Below are positions 2,851 to 9,571 of a stretch of DNA of 64,000 bases, piece by piece; the stretch's first letter is position 1, and each line of letters opens with the position of its first letter. Source of the stretch: Conexibacter arvalis (GTDB taxonomy: Bacteria > Actinomycetota > Thermoleophilia > Solirubrobacterales > Solirubrobacteraceae); contig NZ_JACHNU010000002.1 of assembly GCF_014199525.1 (NCBI RefSeq), forward strand, positions 106,147 through 170,146, given 5' to 3'. Both the position numbers and the translations under genes were made by a program. A model generated the notes under the pieces. That model was not told where the DNA came from. It was given only the letters and a program-made list of their open reading frames with translations, and did no database searches.

Positions 2851-3732
2851 TCAGCTGGAGCGGCCGGTCGTTCTGCGCGCCGCCGAGGTGCGGGGGCGGC
2901 CCGGACGGCGGGGCGGCGACACTCTGCGCGGCGTGCGGCGGCGGGCCGGCGGGCGCTCCCGACCGTCCCCCTCGGCCTCCGGCTTCTCCTCGGCCTCAGC
3001 TTCCGGCTTCTCTTCAGCCTCGGCCTCGGGCTCTTCCTCGGCCTCCGCCTCGGGCTCTTCCTCAGCCTCGGCCTCGGGCTCTTCCTCAGCCTCGGCCTCG
3101 GGCTCTTCCTCAGCCTCGGCCTCGGGCTCTTCCTCAGCCTCGGCCTCGGGCTCTTCCTCGGCCTCGGCCTCCGGCTCCTCCTCGGCCTCGGCCTCCGGCT
3201 CCTCCTCGGCCTCGGCCTCCGGCTCCTCCTCAGCCTCGGCCTCCGCCTCCGGCTCCTCAGCCTCCGCCTCCGGCTCCTCCTCTTCAGCCTCCGCCTCCGG
3301 CTCCTCCTCAGCCTCGGCCTCCGGCTCCTCCTCTTCAGCCTCGGCCTCCGGCTCCTCCTCCTCAGCCTCCGCCTCCGGCTCCTCCTCCTCGGCCTCCGCC
3401 TCCGGCTCCTCCTCAGCCTCCGCCTCGGGCTCCTCCTCCTCGGCCTCCGCCTCCGGGCCGTGCTCGGTCTCCTCCTCGGCGGACGCGGAATCAGCGGACG
3501 AGGCGCGCTCCTGCTCCTCGTCCTCGCCCTCTTCCCCGCCGCCCGCGCCCTGCAGGCGCTCCTGCAGCAGTCTGCGGGCGGGGCCGGCGGCGGCGCGTGC
3601 GGCCGCGACGGTGCCGACGCCGAGCGCGAGCGCGCGGCCCGGGGTCAGGAAGCGGCGCTTCCGACCGGATCTCAGGTCCTCGAGGGCCGACTCGATCGCG
3701 GCGTTCACGGCTCTCTGTACGTCAATCGGCAT
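2851..3732 (-). CDS. acidic (PEAEAEEE)n repeat protein, gas vesicle locus
   Basis: This 293-residue protein has no recognised catalytic domain. Residues 1-75 form a basic, Ala-rich segment (MPIDVQRAVNAAIESALEDL, then RKRRFLTPGRALALGVGTVAAARAAAG). About 160 residues of near-perfect PEAEAEEE repeats (roughly 20 units) follow, ending in an Arg/Pro-rich basic tail (RRRTPRRVSPPRRPGRP). The middle should be highly acidic and extended or helical. GGGAG lies upstream of the ATG. It is the last gene of the operon divergent from gvpA, and the same repeat occurs in the SRPBCC protein two genes upstream. The N-terminus may correspond to small gas-vesicle-accessory proteins of actinomycetes (GvpY-like), but that is a guess. 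Repeat number may vary between strains. Confidence 0.7.
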   Translation of the reverse strand: MPIDVQRAVNAAIESALEDLRSGRKRRFLTPGRALALGVGTVAAARAAAGPARRLLQERLQGAGGGEEGEDEEQERASSADSASAEEETEHGPEAEAEEEEPEAEAEEEPEAEAEEEEPEAEAEEEEPEAEAEEEEPEAEAEEEPEAEAEEEEPEAEAEEPEAEAEAEEEPEAEAEEEPEAEAEEEPEAEAEEEPEAEAEEEPEAEAEEEPEAEAEEEPEAEAEEEPEAEAEEEPEAEAEEKPEAEAEEKPEAEGDGRERPPARRRTPRRVSPPRRPGRPRTSAARRTTGRSS

Positions 3733-3923: not shown

Positions 3924-5186
3924 CTACCCTCTCGCCGTCGGCGCCGCCCTGCGACGGCCCGGCGCGCTGCGACGGTTGTCGCCGCGGCCGTCGTCGCCGC
4001 GTCGGGCAGGTGTCCGGCGGCGTCTCGCAGCGGCAGGCTGGCGCCGTCTGGCGACCGGCGCGGGCTCGGGCTCCTCGGCCTCGGGCTCCTCCTCAGCCTC
4101 CGCCTCGGGCTCCTCCTCCGCCTCCGCCTCGGGCTCCTCCTCCGCCTCGGGCTCCTCCTCCGCCTCGGCCTCCGGCCCCTGCTGCTCCTCCTCGGACTCC
4201 TCGCCCGCGGCCGACGGCGCCTCGGAGTAGTCGCGCTCCTCGTCGTACGCGGGATCGTGGTCCTCGACCAGCTCGCCGTCCTCGATCACGCCGCGCCAGG
4301 CGCCGGTCTCCATCTCCTGCATCTCGATGTACGCCTTGAAGCGGTGCATGTCGGCCCGCATCGCGCGCTTGATGTGGCGCATGCCGCGCGCCGCCTTCTC
4401 GATCAGCGAGCCGGGCGCGACGTCGACGCTCAGCTCGATCCGCGTCAGCCGCGGCGCGAGCTCGTGGAAGGTCACGACACCGGTGTGGGTGATGCCCTCC
4501 TCGACCGACCACTTGATGCGCTCGTCGGGGCGCTGGGTCTCGATCTTGGCGGTGAACTCCTTCGTCTTCGCCCAGATCTTCGTCGCGAACTTGACGGTGC
4601 AGGGATCGTCCTGCGTCACGCGCGTGACGCGGTGCATGAAGTTCGGCCAGTCCTCGAACTGCGTCCACTGGTTGTAGGCCGTCTCGATCGGGACCGCGAC
4701 GTCCATCGACTGCTGCACCGGCATCCGCCGGCCCTCGCCGACGCCGGGCACGCCCTGCTCCCCGCCGCCGTCGCCACCGCCGCCGCCGAACGGCAGCATG
4801 CTCTCGCCGACTCTCTTGGCCACGCCGCCGACGCCGCCGGCCTCGTCGACCGTCTCCTTCACCTTCCCGCCGACGCCCTTGCCGACCGCGTCGCCGAGCT
4901 TGTGCGTCACGCTGTCGACCGCGCCGCCGGCGCCCGTCGCCTTGCCGACCGCGCCGGTCGCCTGCTTGGCTCCCTCGCCCATGAGGCGTCTTCTGGCGAC
5001 GCGGACGGCGCCCTTCGCGGCGAGCGGCGCGAGCGCGGCCAGACCGGCGCCCGCGGCGACGCCGCCCGCACCGGAGAGCGGGTTGCGCGAAGACTTGCTC
5101 TTGCCGTCGATCCCGATGTTCTTCGCCGCGTCACGAACCGCGTTGCTGAGCGTGTCGCGCATGACGTCCGCGATGTCCTTGGCCAT
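3924..5186 (-). CDS. SRPBCC-family protein with acidic repeat tail, gas vesicle locus
   Basis: Residues 1-145 are a low-complexity Ala/Gly/Lys segment starting [20 protein letters not shown]. Residues about 150-290 form a polyketide-cyclase/START-like SRPBCC domain ([20 protein letters not shown], then [15 protein letters not shown] and ARLTRIEL-type strands). The C-terminus carries PEAEAEEE repeats and a basic Arg-rich tail, the same layout as the acidic protein two genes on. SRPBCC proteins are frequent neighbours of actinobacterial gas vesicle genes, where their role is not established; binding a hydrophobic ligand or a shell component is inference. It is the first gene of the operon divergent from gvpA. 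Confidence 0.8.
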
Positions 5187-5546: not shown

Positions 5547-5945
5547 ATGGGAGTGCAGCCGAGCCCGGGAGGAGCGCTGGAGCGCAACCAGGAAAGCTCC
5601 CTCGCGGATGTCGTGAACACGATCCTCGACAAGGGCGTCGTCGTCGACGTCTTCGCGCGCGTGTCGCTCGTCGGCATCGAGCTGCTGCGGGCCGACGTCC
5701 GCGTCGTGATCGCGAGCGTCGACACCTACCTGCGGTTCGCTGACGCGGTCGGACGGCTCGACATGGGCAGCGAGGAGCCGCGCGACCTGACCGAGGTCGT
5801 CGAGGACGTCTCCGAGGGCGCATCCAAGGGCAAGAGCCGCGGCGTGCTGGAGGCCGGCGCCGAGAAGCTGCAGGACATCGTCGGCGGCGGCGAGCGGGAG
5901 CAGGAGCCCGCGAAGCGCTCGGGCGGCAGAGGAGGCAAGCGATGA
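5547..5945 (+). CDS. gvpA: gas vesicle structural protein GvpA
   Basis: GvpA is the main shell protein; it assembles into ribs that form the gas-filled vesicle wall. Residues about 14-66 carry the diagnostic core: [20 protein letters not shown], then [20 protein letters not shown] and [17 protein letters not shown] charged C-terminal extension of about 60 residues follows, as seen in other actinobacterial GvpA proteins and absent from the short cyanobacterial form. GGAGG at 5534-5538 places the start at ATG 5547. The stop overlaps the gvpF start (ATGA), indicating translational coupling. This is the first gene of the + strand gvp operon. Confidence 0.95.
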
Positions 5946-6739
5946 GCGCGCAGCGACAGCGCGAGCGCGAGAGCGGCGGCGAGCAGGGCCGCAGAGGCGT
6001 CTGGGTCTACGGCGTCGCGCCGGCCGGCGCCGCGCTGCGCGAGCTGGAGCGGCGCCGCGACAGACTCCCCGAGGTGTGGGTCGTCGACGCCGGCGACCTC
6101 GGCGCGATCGCCGGCCCGGCCCCCTCCGACGACGAGCGGGGGACGCGCGACCAGGCGCTCGCGCACGCGCACGTGCTCGAGGCCGCGATCCTCGACGCGC
6201 CGGTCGTCCCGTTCCGCTTCGGGATCGTCGTCGGCGACGCGCAGGACGTCGGCGAGGACCTCCTGCTCGCCCACCACGACGAGCTGGCGGCGCTGCTGAG
6301 ACGGGTCGAGAGCCGCCTCCAGATGACCCTCAAGGCCTACTACGACGAGGACGCGCTGCTGCGCGAGATCGTCGAGGCCGAGCCGGAGGTCGCGCGCCTG
6401 CGCGAGCAGCTGCGCGACGCGCCCGAGGAGGAGACGCGCGAGCAGCGCGTGCGGCTCGGCGAGCTGGTCGGCGCCGCCGTCGACCAGGCGCGCGAGCGCG
6501 ACGCCGCGGCGCTGCTCGACGCGCTGCGGCCGGTCGCGGTCGCCGCCGCCCCGGATCCGATCGAGCGCGAGTACATGGTCTGCAACGTGCCGCTGCTGGT
6601 CGAGCGCGATCGGCGCGAGGAGTTCGAGCAGGCCGTCGAGCAGCTCGCCGGCGACCACGCCGGGCGGATCCGCTTCCGCCTGCTCGGCCCGATGCCCGCG
6701 TACAGCTTCATCGACGTGGAGGAGCCGAGATGGGCCTGA
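5942..6739 (+). CDS. gvpF: gas vesicle protein GvpF (GvpF/GvpL family)
   Basis: This 265-residue protein belongs to the GvpL/GvpF family, minor components needed for vesicle assembly that contact GvpA in studied systems. Family features are VWVYGVAP at the N-terminus, [20 protein letters not shown] near residue 90, and the C-terminal [20 protein letters not shown] and [16 protein letters not shown] segment. The middle is rich in Glu and Arg and probably helical. It overlaps gvpA by 4 bp and gvpG by 10 bp. A second family member lies downstream (gvpL, 7693-8712). The F versus L naming rests on gene order as well as sequence. Confidence 0.92.
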
Positions 6740-7262: not shown

Positions 7263-7700
7263 ATGAGCGGGATCGTCCCCTCCAGCTCCGGAAACGCCGC
7301 CGCTCCGGGCGGAGCGCTCGCCGGCGCGTCGGAGGGCGCGTCGAACCTCGCCGACGTGCTCGAGCGCGTCCTCGACAAGGGGATCGTGATCGTCGGCGAC
7401 ATCCGCGTGAACCTGCTCGACATCGAGCTGCTGACGATCAGACTGCGGCTGCTCGTCGCCGGCGTCGACACGGCGCGGCGGATCGGCATCGACTGGTGGG
7501 AGCACGACCCGTGGCTGAGCGGCGGCGACGAGAACAGGCGCGCCGAGCTGGAGCAGCGGCTCGACCGGATCGAGCGGCTCGTCGCCGGCGAGGAGGAGCC
7601 GCCGGCGCTGGAGCGGGAGAACGAGCAGCTGCGCGAGGAGGTCGACCGCCTCCGCCGCCAGCTGACGAGCGGGAGCGAGCAGCGGGGAGCCGATGGCTGA
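7263..7700 (+). CDS. gvpJ: gas vesicle protein GvpJ (GvpA-like)
   Basis: GvpJ is a minor GvpA-homologous protein thought to act in shell nucleation. The GvpA-like core is at residues about 26-76: SNLADVLERVLDKGIVIVGD, IRVNLLDIELLTIRLRLLVA, followed by GIDWWEHDPWL, which is characteristic of GvpJ rather than GvpA. A heptad-like charged tail (RLDRIERLVAGEEE, NEQLREEVDRLRRQL) suggests a coiled coil. The stop overlaps the start of gvpL. Confidence 0.92.
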   Translation: MSGIVPSSSGNAAAPGGALAGASEGASNLADVLERVLDKGIVIVGDIRVNLLDIELLTIRLRLLVAGVDTARRIGIDWWEHDPWLSGGDENRRAELEQRLDRIERLVAGEEEPPALERENEQLREEVDRLRRQLTSGSEQRGADG

Positions 7701-8712
7701 GCCGGCGGTCGGCTGGTACCTCTACTGCGTCCTCGACGCCGCGGCGCGGCCGCCGCTCGACGGGCTGGTCGGCGTCGACGGCGCGGCCCCGATCGAGCCG
7801 GTCGACGAGACCGGCCTGCGGGCGCTGGCCAGCCGCGTGCCGCTCAGCGAGTTCGGCGAGGAGCCGCTGCGGCGCAACCTCGAGGACCTCGCCTGGGTCG
7901 AGCGGACCGCGCGCGCTCACGACGCCGTCCTCGCCCGCACGCTCGCGTGCGACGCGGTCGTCCCGCTGCGGATGTTCACGATCTTCGCCGGCGAGCCCCA
8001 GGTCCGCGCGATGCTCGCCGACGAGCGCGCCGCGTTGACGGCCGCCCTGCGCCGCCTGCGCGGCCACGCCGAGTGGAGCGTCAAGGCGCGCGTCGACGAG
8101 CGGCGGCTGGAGGCGGTCCTGCGCGGCGAGGGCGGTGCGGGCGCGGCCGGCGCGGGCGCGGCGGGCGCAGGCGCGGCGGGCGCGGGCGCCGGTGGCGCGG
8201 CCGGTGCGGGCGCGGCGGGCGCAGGCGCGGCAGGCGCGGGCGCCGGTGGCGCGGCCGGTGCGGGCGCAGCGGGCGCAGGCGCGGCGGGCGCGGGCGCGGG
8301 CGCCGGTGGTGCGGACGCGGCGGGTGCCGGTGGCGCGGGCGCGGAGACGACCCCCGGCCGGGCCTTCTTCGCGCGCAAGCAGGCCGACCGCGGCCTGCGC
8401 GAGCGGGCGCTGGAGCGGATCGCCGACATCGCGGAGGAGATCCACGCGCGGCTGAGCGAGGCGGCGTCCGCCGAGACGCTGCTGCCGCCGCAGCGGCGCG
8501 AGCTGTCGCGCCTGCCCGGAACGATGGTGCTCAACGGCGCCTACCTCGTCGCCCGCGAGCGCGACGCCGCCTTCTCGGCGGCCGTCACGGAGCTGTCGGC
8601 GCGCCACCGCGCGGAGGGCTTCGCGATCGACGTCAGCGGCCCGTGGGCGCCGTACAACTTCGCGAAGCCCGGAGCGGAAGATGAGCAGCGAGCGCCGGCG
8701 CCCGGCCGCTGA
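7693..8712 (+). CDS. gvpL: gas vesicle protein GvpL (GvpF/GvpL family) with Ala/Gly insertion
   Basis: This is the second GvpF/GvpL-family protein (339 residues). The N-terminal half has WYLYCVLD, a DLAWVERTARAHDAVLARTL helix and VVPLRMFTIF. The C-terminal half has PPQRRELSRLPGTMVLNGAY, LVARERDAAFSAAVTEL and VSGPWAPYNFAK. Between them residues about 148-218 are an almost pure Ala/Gly tract built from GAGAAGAGA-type repeats (nucleotides 8133-8345). This replaces the short linker of ordinary family members and explains the extra length. The 3' end overlaps the next gene by 32 bp. Confidence 0.9.
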   Translation: MAEPAVGWYLYCVLDAAARPPLDGLVGVDGAAPIEPVDETGLRALASRVPLSEFGEEPLRRNLEDLAWVERTARAHDAVLARTLACDAVVPLRMFTIFAGEPQVRAMLADERAALTAALRRLRGHAEWSVKARVDERRLEAVLRGEGGAGAAGAGAAGAGAAGAGAGGAAGAGAAGAGAAGAGAGGAAGAGAAGAGAAGAGAGAGGADAAGAGGAGAETTPGRAFFARKQADRGLRERALERIADIAEEIHARLSEAASAETLLPPQRRELSRLPGTMVLNGAYLVARERDAAFSAAVTELSARHRAEGFAIDVSGPWAPYNFAKPGAEDEQRAPAPGR

Positions 8713-9571
8713 GGGCGAGGTCGAGCGGCCGACCGCCGAGCGCGACGTCGAGCGGCCGGCGGCTGAAGGCGAGGTCGAGCGGCCGACCGCCGAGCGCGAC
8801 GTCGAGCGGCCGGCGGCTGAAGGCGAGCGTCAGCGCCCGGCCGCTCAGCGTGAGGTCGCGCTGGTCGACGTGCTCGACCGCGCGCTCGGCACGGGCGTGG
8901 TCGTCAACGGCGACGCCGCGCTCTCGCTCGCCGACATCGACCTCGTCGAGATCGGCCTGCGGCTGGTCGTCGGCTCGGTCCCGGCGCTCCGCCCGTCCGC
9001 GGCCGAGCAGGAGGCCGAGACGGGCGGAGCGCCGGAGACGGGCGCGAAGGGCGGCGCACCGACGGCGGCCGCGCCAGGTGGACCGGCCGCGGCGCCGACG
9101 GCTGGCGCGTCGCCGCGGACGGCACCGGTGTCGCCGGCGCCCGCGGACGCGCTGCCCCGGCGAGCCACCCCGCCGCCGCACGCGCCGGCGGCCGCCGCCC
9201 CGGAGCCGCGCGCGCCGGAGCGCGCGCTGCCAGCCCGCGCCGCCCGGCCGGCGCGGGCGCACGAGCCGGAGGACGGCCCGCCGACGGAGCCCGTCGCGCG
9301 GGTCCGGCCGACGCGGCTCGACGCCGACGAGGACGACCTTGCGCGCGGGCTGGGCCAGCTCGTGCTGACGATCGTCGAGCTGCTGCGCCAGCTGATGGAG
9401 CGCCAGGCGATCCGCCGCGTCGAGGCCGGCGGACTGGACGAGGACGAGGTCGAGCGGCTCGGGCGCGCCCTGCTCGCGCTCGAGCGCCAGATGGACGAGC
9501 TGAAGGAGACCTTCGGGCTGACCGACGAGGACCTCAACCTCGACCTCGGCCCGCTCGGCAGACTGCTGTGA
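8681..9571 (+). CDS. gvpK: GvpS-GvpK fusion protein
   Basis: One uninterrupted frame of 296 residues joins two gas vesicle proteins. Residues 1-55 are charged repeats (two 54-bp units, GEVERPTAERDVERPAAE). Residues about 56-105 are a GvpA-family domain of GvpS type (VALVDVLDRALGTGVVVNGD, LSLADIDLVEIGLRLVVGS). Residues about 106-210 are an Ala/Pro linker. Residues about 213-296 are GvpK (DEDDLARGLGQLVLTIVELL, MERQAIRRVEAGGL, LKETFGLTDEDLNLDLGPLG). In Streptomyces gvp clusters gvpS and gvpK are neighbouring separate genes. No internal stop or good internal start separates them here. The ATG at 8681 has GGAGCGGAAG upstream. This is the last gene of the operon. Confidence 0.9.
   Translation: MSSERRRPAAEGEVERPTAERDVERPAAEGEVERPTAERDVERPAAEGERQRPAAQREVALVDVLDRALGTGVVVNGDAALSLADIDLVEIGLRLVVGSVPALRPSAAEQEAETGGAPETGAKGGAPTAAAPGGPAAAPTAGASPRTAPVSPAPADALPRRATPPPHAPAAAAPEPRAPERALPARAARPARAHEPEDGPPTEPVARVRPTRLDADEDDLARGLGQLVLTIVELLRQLMERQAIRRVEAGGLDEDEVERLGRALLALERQMDELKETFGLTDEDLNLDLGPLGRLL

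What the first reader, a model, noticed from the sequence alone, without database searches (positions are those of the whole stretch)
8681..9571. GvpS-GvpK fusion in the gas vesicle operon
A GvpA-family domain of GvpS type and a complete GvpK domain are in one 296-residue frame, joined by an Ala/Pro linker. These are separate neighbours in Streptomyces clusters. A fusion implies that the two minor proteins work together in equal amounts during vesicle assembly.
Basis: partly seen in the sequence, partly recalled or inferred. Interest (0 to 1): 0.6.

Follow-up and report, generated by a model that had tools for sequence, protein, structure and literature searches.

The report
GvpS-GvpK fusion gene, gas vesicle cluster
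Two small proteins that help bacteria start building gas-filled flotation vesicles, normally made from two separate genes, are here made as one joined protein; this is rare, seems to have happened at least twice, and fits the idea that the two act together when a vesicle is started.

Summary
Confirmed. Window 8681-9571 (+) is one 296-codon frame with a GvpA-family domain (PF00741, 8e-12) and a complete GvpK domain (PF05121, 4e-33), joined by about 107 Ala/Pro-rich residues. No single indel in the linker could end the first gene ahead of GvpK. The cluster is gvpA-F-G-O-J-L-[S-K]; a congener has A-F-G-O-J-L-S-F3-K, with a third gvpF/L gene ("F3") between S and K. Of 103 GvpK loci read, 3 are fused, 45 have F3 between S and K, 44 have S and K adjacent in different frames, 8 are of another type, 3 lack a detectable S or K. 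The other two fusions belong to another family of the class and are not sister to this one (AU p = 0.004): fusion arose at least twice, each time without F3. Most likely it is a working, tethered pair of nucleation proteins, made by loss of F3 and gain of a low-complexity linker. Published work on other gas vesicles puts S, K, J and L in one early complex. Function here is inferred. New variant of a known kind.

The parts
8681..9571 (+). gvpS-gvpK fusion gene, 296 aa, ATG start, TGA stop
   Evidence: ORF; Pfam; only GvpK in genome
8671..8674 (+). GGAG, likely ribosome binding site 6 nt before the ATG
   Evidence: read directly from the sequence
8698..8858 (+). 54-nt tandem repeat, 3 copies, coding for charged N-terminal repeats of type VERPTAERDVERPAAEGE
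   Evidence: TRF
8858..8971 (+). GvpA-family (GvpS/M-type) domain, residues 60-97
   Evidence: PF00741, 45.5 bits; 73% aa identity over 45 residues to GvpS of congener G082
8993..9313 (+). Ala/Pro-rich linker, residues 105-211, predicted disordered
   Evidence: composition 32 A, 25 P of 107; no helix or strand and pLDDT at most about 60 over most of it in a low-confidence model
9314..9568 (+). complete GvpK domain, residues 212-296, predicted helical hairpin
   Evidence: PF05121 1-85/85, 113.8 bits; helices 217-248 and 254-278
7693..8712 (+). gvpL (GvpL/GvpF family); carries an in-frame Ala/Gly-rich insert at about 8121-8344; overlaps the fusion gene by 32 nt
   Evidence: PF06386 in two stretches; TRF
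7263..7700 (+). gvpJ-type GvpA-family gene
   Evidence: PF00741
6980..7258 (+). gvpO
   Evidence: PF05800
6730..6987 (+). gvpG
   Evidence: PF05120; start codon chosen by eye
5942..6739 (+). gvpF
   Evidence: PF06386 over nearly the whole profile
5547..5945 (+). gvpA (likely major shell protein)
   Evidence: PF00741; start codon chosen by eye

Best explanation
It is a real gene fusion of two minor gas vesicle assembly proteins, GvpS (a GvpA-like protein of the early shell) and GvpK (a small soluble helical factor). In an ancestor with the order S-F3-K, the third gvpF/L gene, the stop of gvpS and the start of gvpK were lost and the two frames joined; a low-complexity Ala/Pro linker now separates the domains (sequence comparison: shown; order and mechanism of events: inferred). 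The product most likely works as a tethered nucleation unit: the GvpS domain sits in the first ring or tip of the forming vesicle, and the GvpK domain hangs from it on a flexible linker where it can meet GvpL and help bring GvpA in (inferred from work on other gas vesicles). Tethering fixes the ratio of the two at synthesis and holds GvpK at the nucleation site (inferred).
For: Both domains over cut-off in one frame; no single indel in the linker separates them. Congener G082: A F G O J L S F3 K; window: A F G O J L [S-K]; own genome has only two GvpF/L genes (three matches, two of them halves of gvpL). Window and G082 are sister in an S+K tree (99/89). GvpS keeps a C-terminal tail like that of G082 up to the point where G082's stop lies. 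Both domains look selected: K dN 0.17 v dS 0.95 against L009; S dN 0.16 v dS 0.24 against G082, a weaker signal. A second, non-sister fusion is shared by two genera of another family, at 67% identity. PMC11445434 (passages): in B. megaterium GvpS, GvpK and GvpJ are each needed for the GvpA2-GvpL contact, all GvpS tag fusions allowed vesicles, most GvpK fusions did not interfere, and the gvpK frame overlaps gvpS. PMC9501494 (passages): in Halobacterium, M (= S) and K both contact GvpL, and K is listed as a member of the putative nucleation complex.
Against: No expression, protein or vesicle data for this organism. Direct M-K contact in Halobacterium was weak by split-GFP (rf 1-5) though positive in pulldown (PMC9501494, tables). 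None of seven gvp-bearing genomes searched, this one included, has a GvpN over the curated cut-off, and GvpN is needed to enlarge bicones in Serratia (PMC4982088, section 7), so it is open whether such clusters make full vesicles. Three GvpF genes are each essential in Serratia (same section), and this genome has two GvpF/L genes. The fold model is poor outside GvpK (mean pLDDT 57.7). In order and class the fusion is rare, so it gives no general advantage.
Confidence: 0.72

Rival explanations
1. A decaying gas vesicle cluster: loss of F3 and the read-through fusion are steps of erosion, and the protein has no function.
For: F3 is lost; low-complexity expansions sit in gvpL and the fusion; the congener's gvpK is frameshifted; no GvpN over cut-off.
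Against: All seven gvp genes of the window are intact frames with their domains; GvpK is full length and under purifying selection; repeat units are multiples of three. The congener lacks the repeats but has the broken gvpK, so breakage is not linked to the fusion.
Confidence: 0.15
2. One frame but two proteins: the linker is cut, or GvpK is also started inside the frame, so S and K work apart as elsewhere.
For: A long, unstructured Ala/Pro linker would be easy to cut (inference); one in-frame GTG at 9128 lies ahead of GvpK.
Against: No Shine-Dalgarno-like stretch ahead of 9128 was seen by eye; the L056/L057 fusions have only about 20 residues between domains.
Confidence: 0.1
3. An assembly or sequencing error joins two genes.
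For: GC-rich repetitive DNA is error-prone; no reads were seen.
Against: No single indel in the linker gives gvpS a stop before gvpK; a base error at a stop codon, or a larger misassembly, would be needed. A third gvpF/L gene is missing from the whole assembly.
Confidence: 0.03

Closest known systems
GvpS (B. megaterium) / GvpM (haloarchaea) / GvpA2 (Serratia)
   Same: Short GvpA-family domain, minor protein, encoded next to or near gvpK and gvpL
   Different: Here it has an N-terminal repeat extension and continues into GvpK
GvpK (PF05121)
   Same: Complete 85-position domain with the C-terminal LNLxLGPLGxLL stretch
   Different: Elsewhere a free protein; here the C-terminal part of a fusion
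S-K fusions L056 (G374) and L057 (G388), same class, other family
   Same: Same domain order, same cluster order A F G O J L [S-K], no F3 between
   Different: Linker of about 20 residues; GvpK matches only profile positions 1-67 and 1-65 of 85; separate origin
B. megaterium pNL29 gvpS/gvpK overlap
   Same: Neighbouring genes with overlapping frames (PMC11445434, methods passage)
   Different: Two proteins, not one

Membership tests
Gas_vesicle (GvpA family, PF00741) | Profile match over the curated cut-off | tested here: met
   45.5 bits v 25, residues 60-97, profile 1-38/39
GvpS/GvpM subfamily | Curated subfamily model over cut-off | tested here: not met
   NCBIfam best are PRK09371 (28 v 100) and halo GvpM (26.2 v 109); no bacterial GvpS model was among the hits. 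I therefore call it GvpS-type, not GvpS by model
GvpS/GvpM subfamily | Position after gvpL and before gvpK, grouping with S genes of relatives | tested here: met
GvpK (PF05121) | Full-length profile match over cut-off | tested here: met
   113.8 bits v 25, 1-85/85
GvpK | Required for vesicle formation | not testable with these tools
   needs deletion and complementation
Gas vesicle cluster | gvpA, F, G, J, K, L, S present | tested here: met
Gas vesicle cluster | GvpN present | tested here: not met
   TIGR02640: 0 of 7 genomes over cut-off, own genome included; the unfused relatives and the G476 cluster lack it too, so this does not set the window apart

The most novel reading that the evidence does not exclude
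F3, the third GvpF/L protein, normally brings GvpS and GvpK together in this class; where it is lost, a covalent link between S and K takes its place. In the class loci examined, all 38 canonical unfused loci keep F3 between S and K and all 3 fused loci lack it (2 further class loci are of a divergent type). Unfused clusters without F3 exist outside the class (44 loci), so this would be a lineage-specific dependence.
Probability: 0.12. Interest if true: 0.6.

Novelty: new variant of a known kind. Interest (0 to 1): 0.4.

Why it matters
GvpK is essential in the well-studied systems, yet little is known of its role (PMC11445434, discussion passage). A natural, repeated fusion to GvpS is independent genetic support for a shared early step and gives a ready-made construct: one protein that could replace two in engineered gas vesicle operons, with long-linker and short-linker versions to compare.

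Tried and rejected
Linker as remnant of F3: not supported. tblastn of two F3 proteins on the linker found nothing at E 10, and the best local score over three frames (51) was reached by 73 of 300 dinucleotide shuffles (mean 47). Nucleotide matches of the linker to G082 were scattered over both strands, typical of GC-rich low complexity.

Single origin of all fusions: rejected by AU test, p = 0.004, 3 rows against 60; the long branch of L056/L057 is a caution, and the group was named after an earlier tree had been seen.

Survey limits: the 103 loci are not a random sample. In the order all 24 true GvpK loci of 232 genomes were read (1 fused); in the class and phylum searches (399 and 396 genomes) nearly all matches; in the large genus of G476 only 27 new loci were read, although 320 of 392 genomes had a match. 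L026 is a sigma factor, L071 had no S found in the stretch, L082 no K by my queries. The tree left out L026, L082, L071 and L076-L081, cut G082's GvpK at its frameshift, and did not include L121-L159. Other phyla were hardly sampled: one Gemmatimonadota contig and six plasmid records, 0 of 6 with a place covering 80% of the query.

Structure: an AlphaFold model from 7 rows had mean pLDDT 57.7, pTM 0.38; only the GvpK helices are usable, so no fold search was run. A larger alignment (A3) gave the S rows low identity to the window, looked misaligned, and was not used. PDB search: only GvpA shell chains, weakly, plus one unrelated chain on the linker.

Literature: no paper on a natural GvpS-GvpK fusion was found (open-access library only; listings seen, three papers read in passages or one section).

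Full report
What is there. Window 8681-9571 (+) encodes 296 residues in one frame. Residues 60-97 match the GvpA family (PF00741, 45.5 bits, cut-off 25) and 212-296 match GvpK over its whole profile (PF05121, 113.8 bits, cut-off 25). Between them lie about 107 residues, 32 Ala and 25 Pro. Ahead of the GvpS domain is a 54-nt tandem repeat, three copies. The start has GGAG six bases upstream and overlaps the end of gvpL by 32 nt, as expected for coupled translation (inference). The fusion is the only GvpK and one of three GvpA-family domains in a 5.2 Mb genome reported 99% complete.

Is the frame real. In DNA this GC-rich an open frame means little: all three frames are open over the linker. Codon usage favours the true frame strongly in both domains (0.73 and 0.69 v at most 0.28) but only weakly in the linker (0.50 v 0.41 and 0.32), with one part of the linker favouring another frame. 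What speaks against an error is that no single indel in the linker could separate the genes: the +1 frame has no stop before 9366, inside GvpK, and the +2 frame none up to the end.

Surroundings. The cluster reads gvpA (5547-5945), gvpF, gvpG, gvpO, gvpJ, gvpL, gvpS-gvpK (gvpA and gvpG starts by eye). There are two GvpF/L genes in the genome; a third match is the second half of gvpL, which is split by an Ala/Gly-rich in-frame insert. No GvpN model match passes the cut-off in this or six other gvp-bearing genomes (0 of 7).

Relatives. The congener G082 has A F G O J L S F3 K, F3 being a short gvpF/L gene; its gvpK is frameshifted. I read 103 GvpK loci: 45 with a GvpF/L gene between S and K (gap between domains 594-1011 nt), 44 with S and K adjacent (32-293 nt), 8 of another, divergent type, 3 fused, 1 without a detectable S, 2 without K. 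In the 44 adjacent loci the gap between domains is never a multiple of three: 41 have remainder 2 and 3 have remainder 1, so neighbours are consistently in different frames. In the window's order all 24 true GvpK loci of 232 genomes were read: 23 have F3 and 1 (the window) is fused. In the class, a further 15 loci have F3, 2 are fused and 2 are of the divergent type.

The second fusion. L056 (G374) and L057 (G388), two genera of another family, carry a 155-159 residue S-K fusion, 67% identical to each other, with both Pfam domains over cut-off, about 20 residues between the domains, and a GvpK that lacks the end of the profile. Both clusters read A F G O J L [S-K]. In that family 2 of 103 genomes had a match over most or all of the fusion. 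In an S+K tree of 63 loci the window is sister to G082 (99/89) and next to L009 (100/98), both with F3, while L056/L057 group with F3-bearing loci of other families (97/78); forcing the three fusions together is rejected (AU p = 0.004). So fusion with loss of F3 happened at least twice, and in the window's lineage after the split from G082.

How it may have arisen. The GvpS tail of the window still resembles that of G082 up to the point of G082's stop, and the GvpK domain begins close to where G082's starts. F3 is gone. The linker shows no significant trace of F3. Since gvpL and the N-terminus of the fusion also carry 54-nt tandem repeats not seen in G082, growth of low-complexity DNA in this lineage is a likely source of the linker (inference).

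How it may work. From papers on other systems: in B. megaterium, GvpS, GvpK and GvpJ are each required for the GvpA2-GvpL contact and are proposed to seed vesicles; every GvpS tag fusion still allowed vesicles and most GvpK fusions did not interfere (PMC11445434, passages). In Halobacterium, GvpM (the GvpS counterpart) and GvpK both contact GvpL, the platform of the nucleation complex; their direct contact is weak by split-GFP but seen in pulldown (PMC9501494, passages and tables). In Serratia gvpA2 (GvpS), gvpK and three gvpF genes are each essential (PMC4982088, passages and section 7). Hence the fusion most likely acts as a tethered seed: the S domain in the first shell, GvpK on a flexible arm next to GvpL (inference). 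Purifying selection on GvpK (dN 0.17, dS 0.95 against L009) and more weakly on S (dN 0.16, dS 0.24 against G082) fits a working protein. The fold model supports only a helical hairpin for GvpK and a disordered linker.

Verdict. A real, rare fusion with an independent parallel; the joint action of S and K is supported by outside data, equal amounts are plausible, and function in this organism is untested. No paper on such a fusion came up in seven searches of the open-access library.

Noticed in passing
L158:179-1498, L159:176-1498: In two genomes of another family of the class (G283, G238) a GvpA-family domain is followed in the same frame by about 270 residues with weak, below-cut-off matches to GRAM/Vps36 PH-like domains: possibly a gas vesicle protein with lipid-binding parts.
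   Followed up: partly
window 8121-8344: gvpL has an in-frame Ala/Gly-rich insert of 54-nt repeats that splits its Pfam match in two; the congener's gvpL lacks it.
   Followed up: partly
window 2851-3732 and 3924-5186, minus strand: Two divergent genes ahead of the cluster carry long acidic [11 protein letters not shown] repeats (24-nt units); the second has a polyketide cyclase/SRPBCC domain.
   Followed up: no
L025:1500-1707 (G082): The congener's only gvpK is frameshifted after about 43 residues of the domain: sequencing error or decay.
   Followed up: no
L056:1420-1896, L057:1429-1893: The GvpK part of these fusions lacks the conserved C-terminal LNLxLGPLG stretch.
   Followed up: partly
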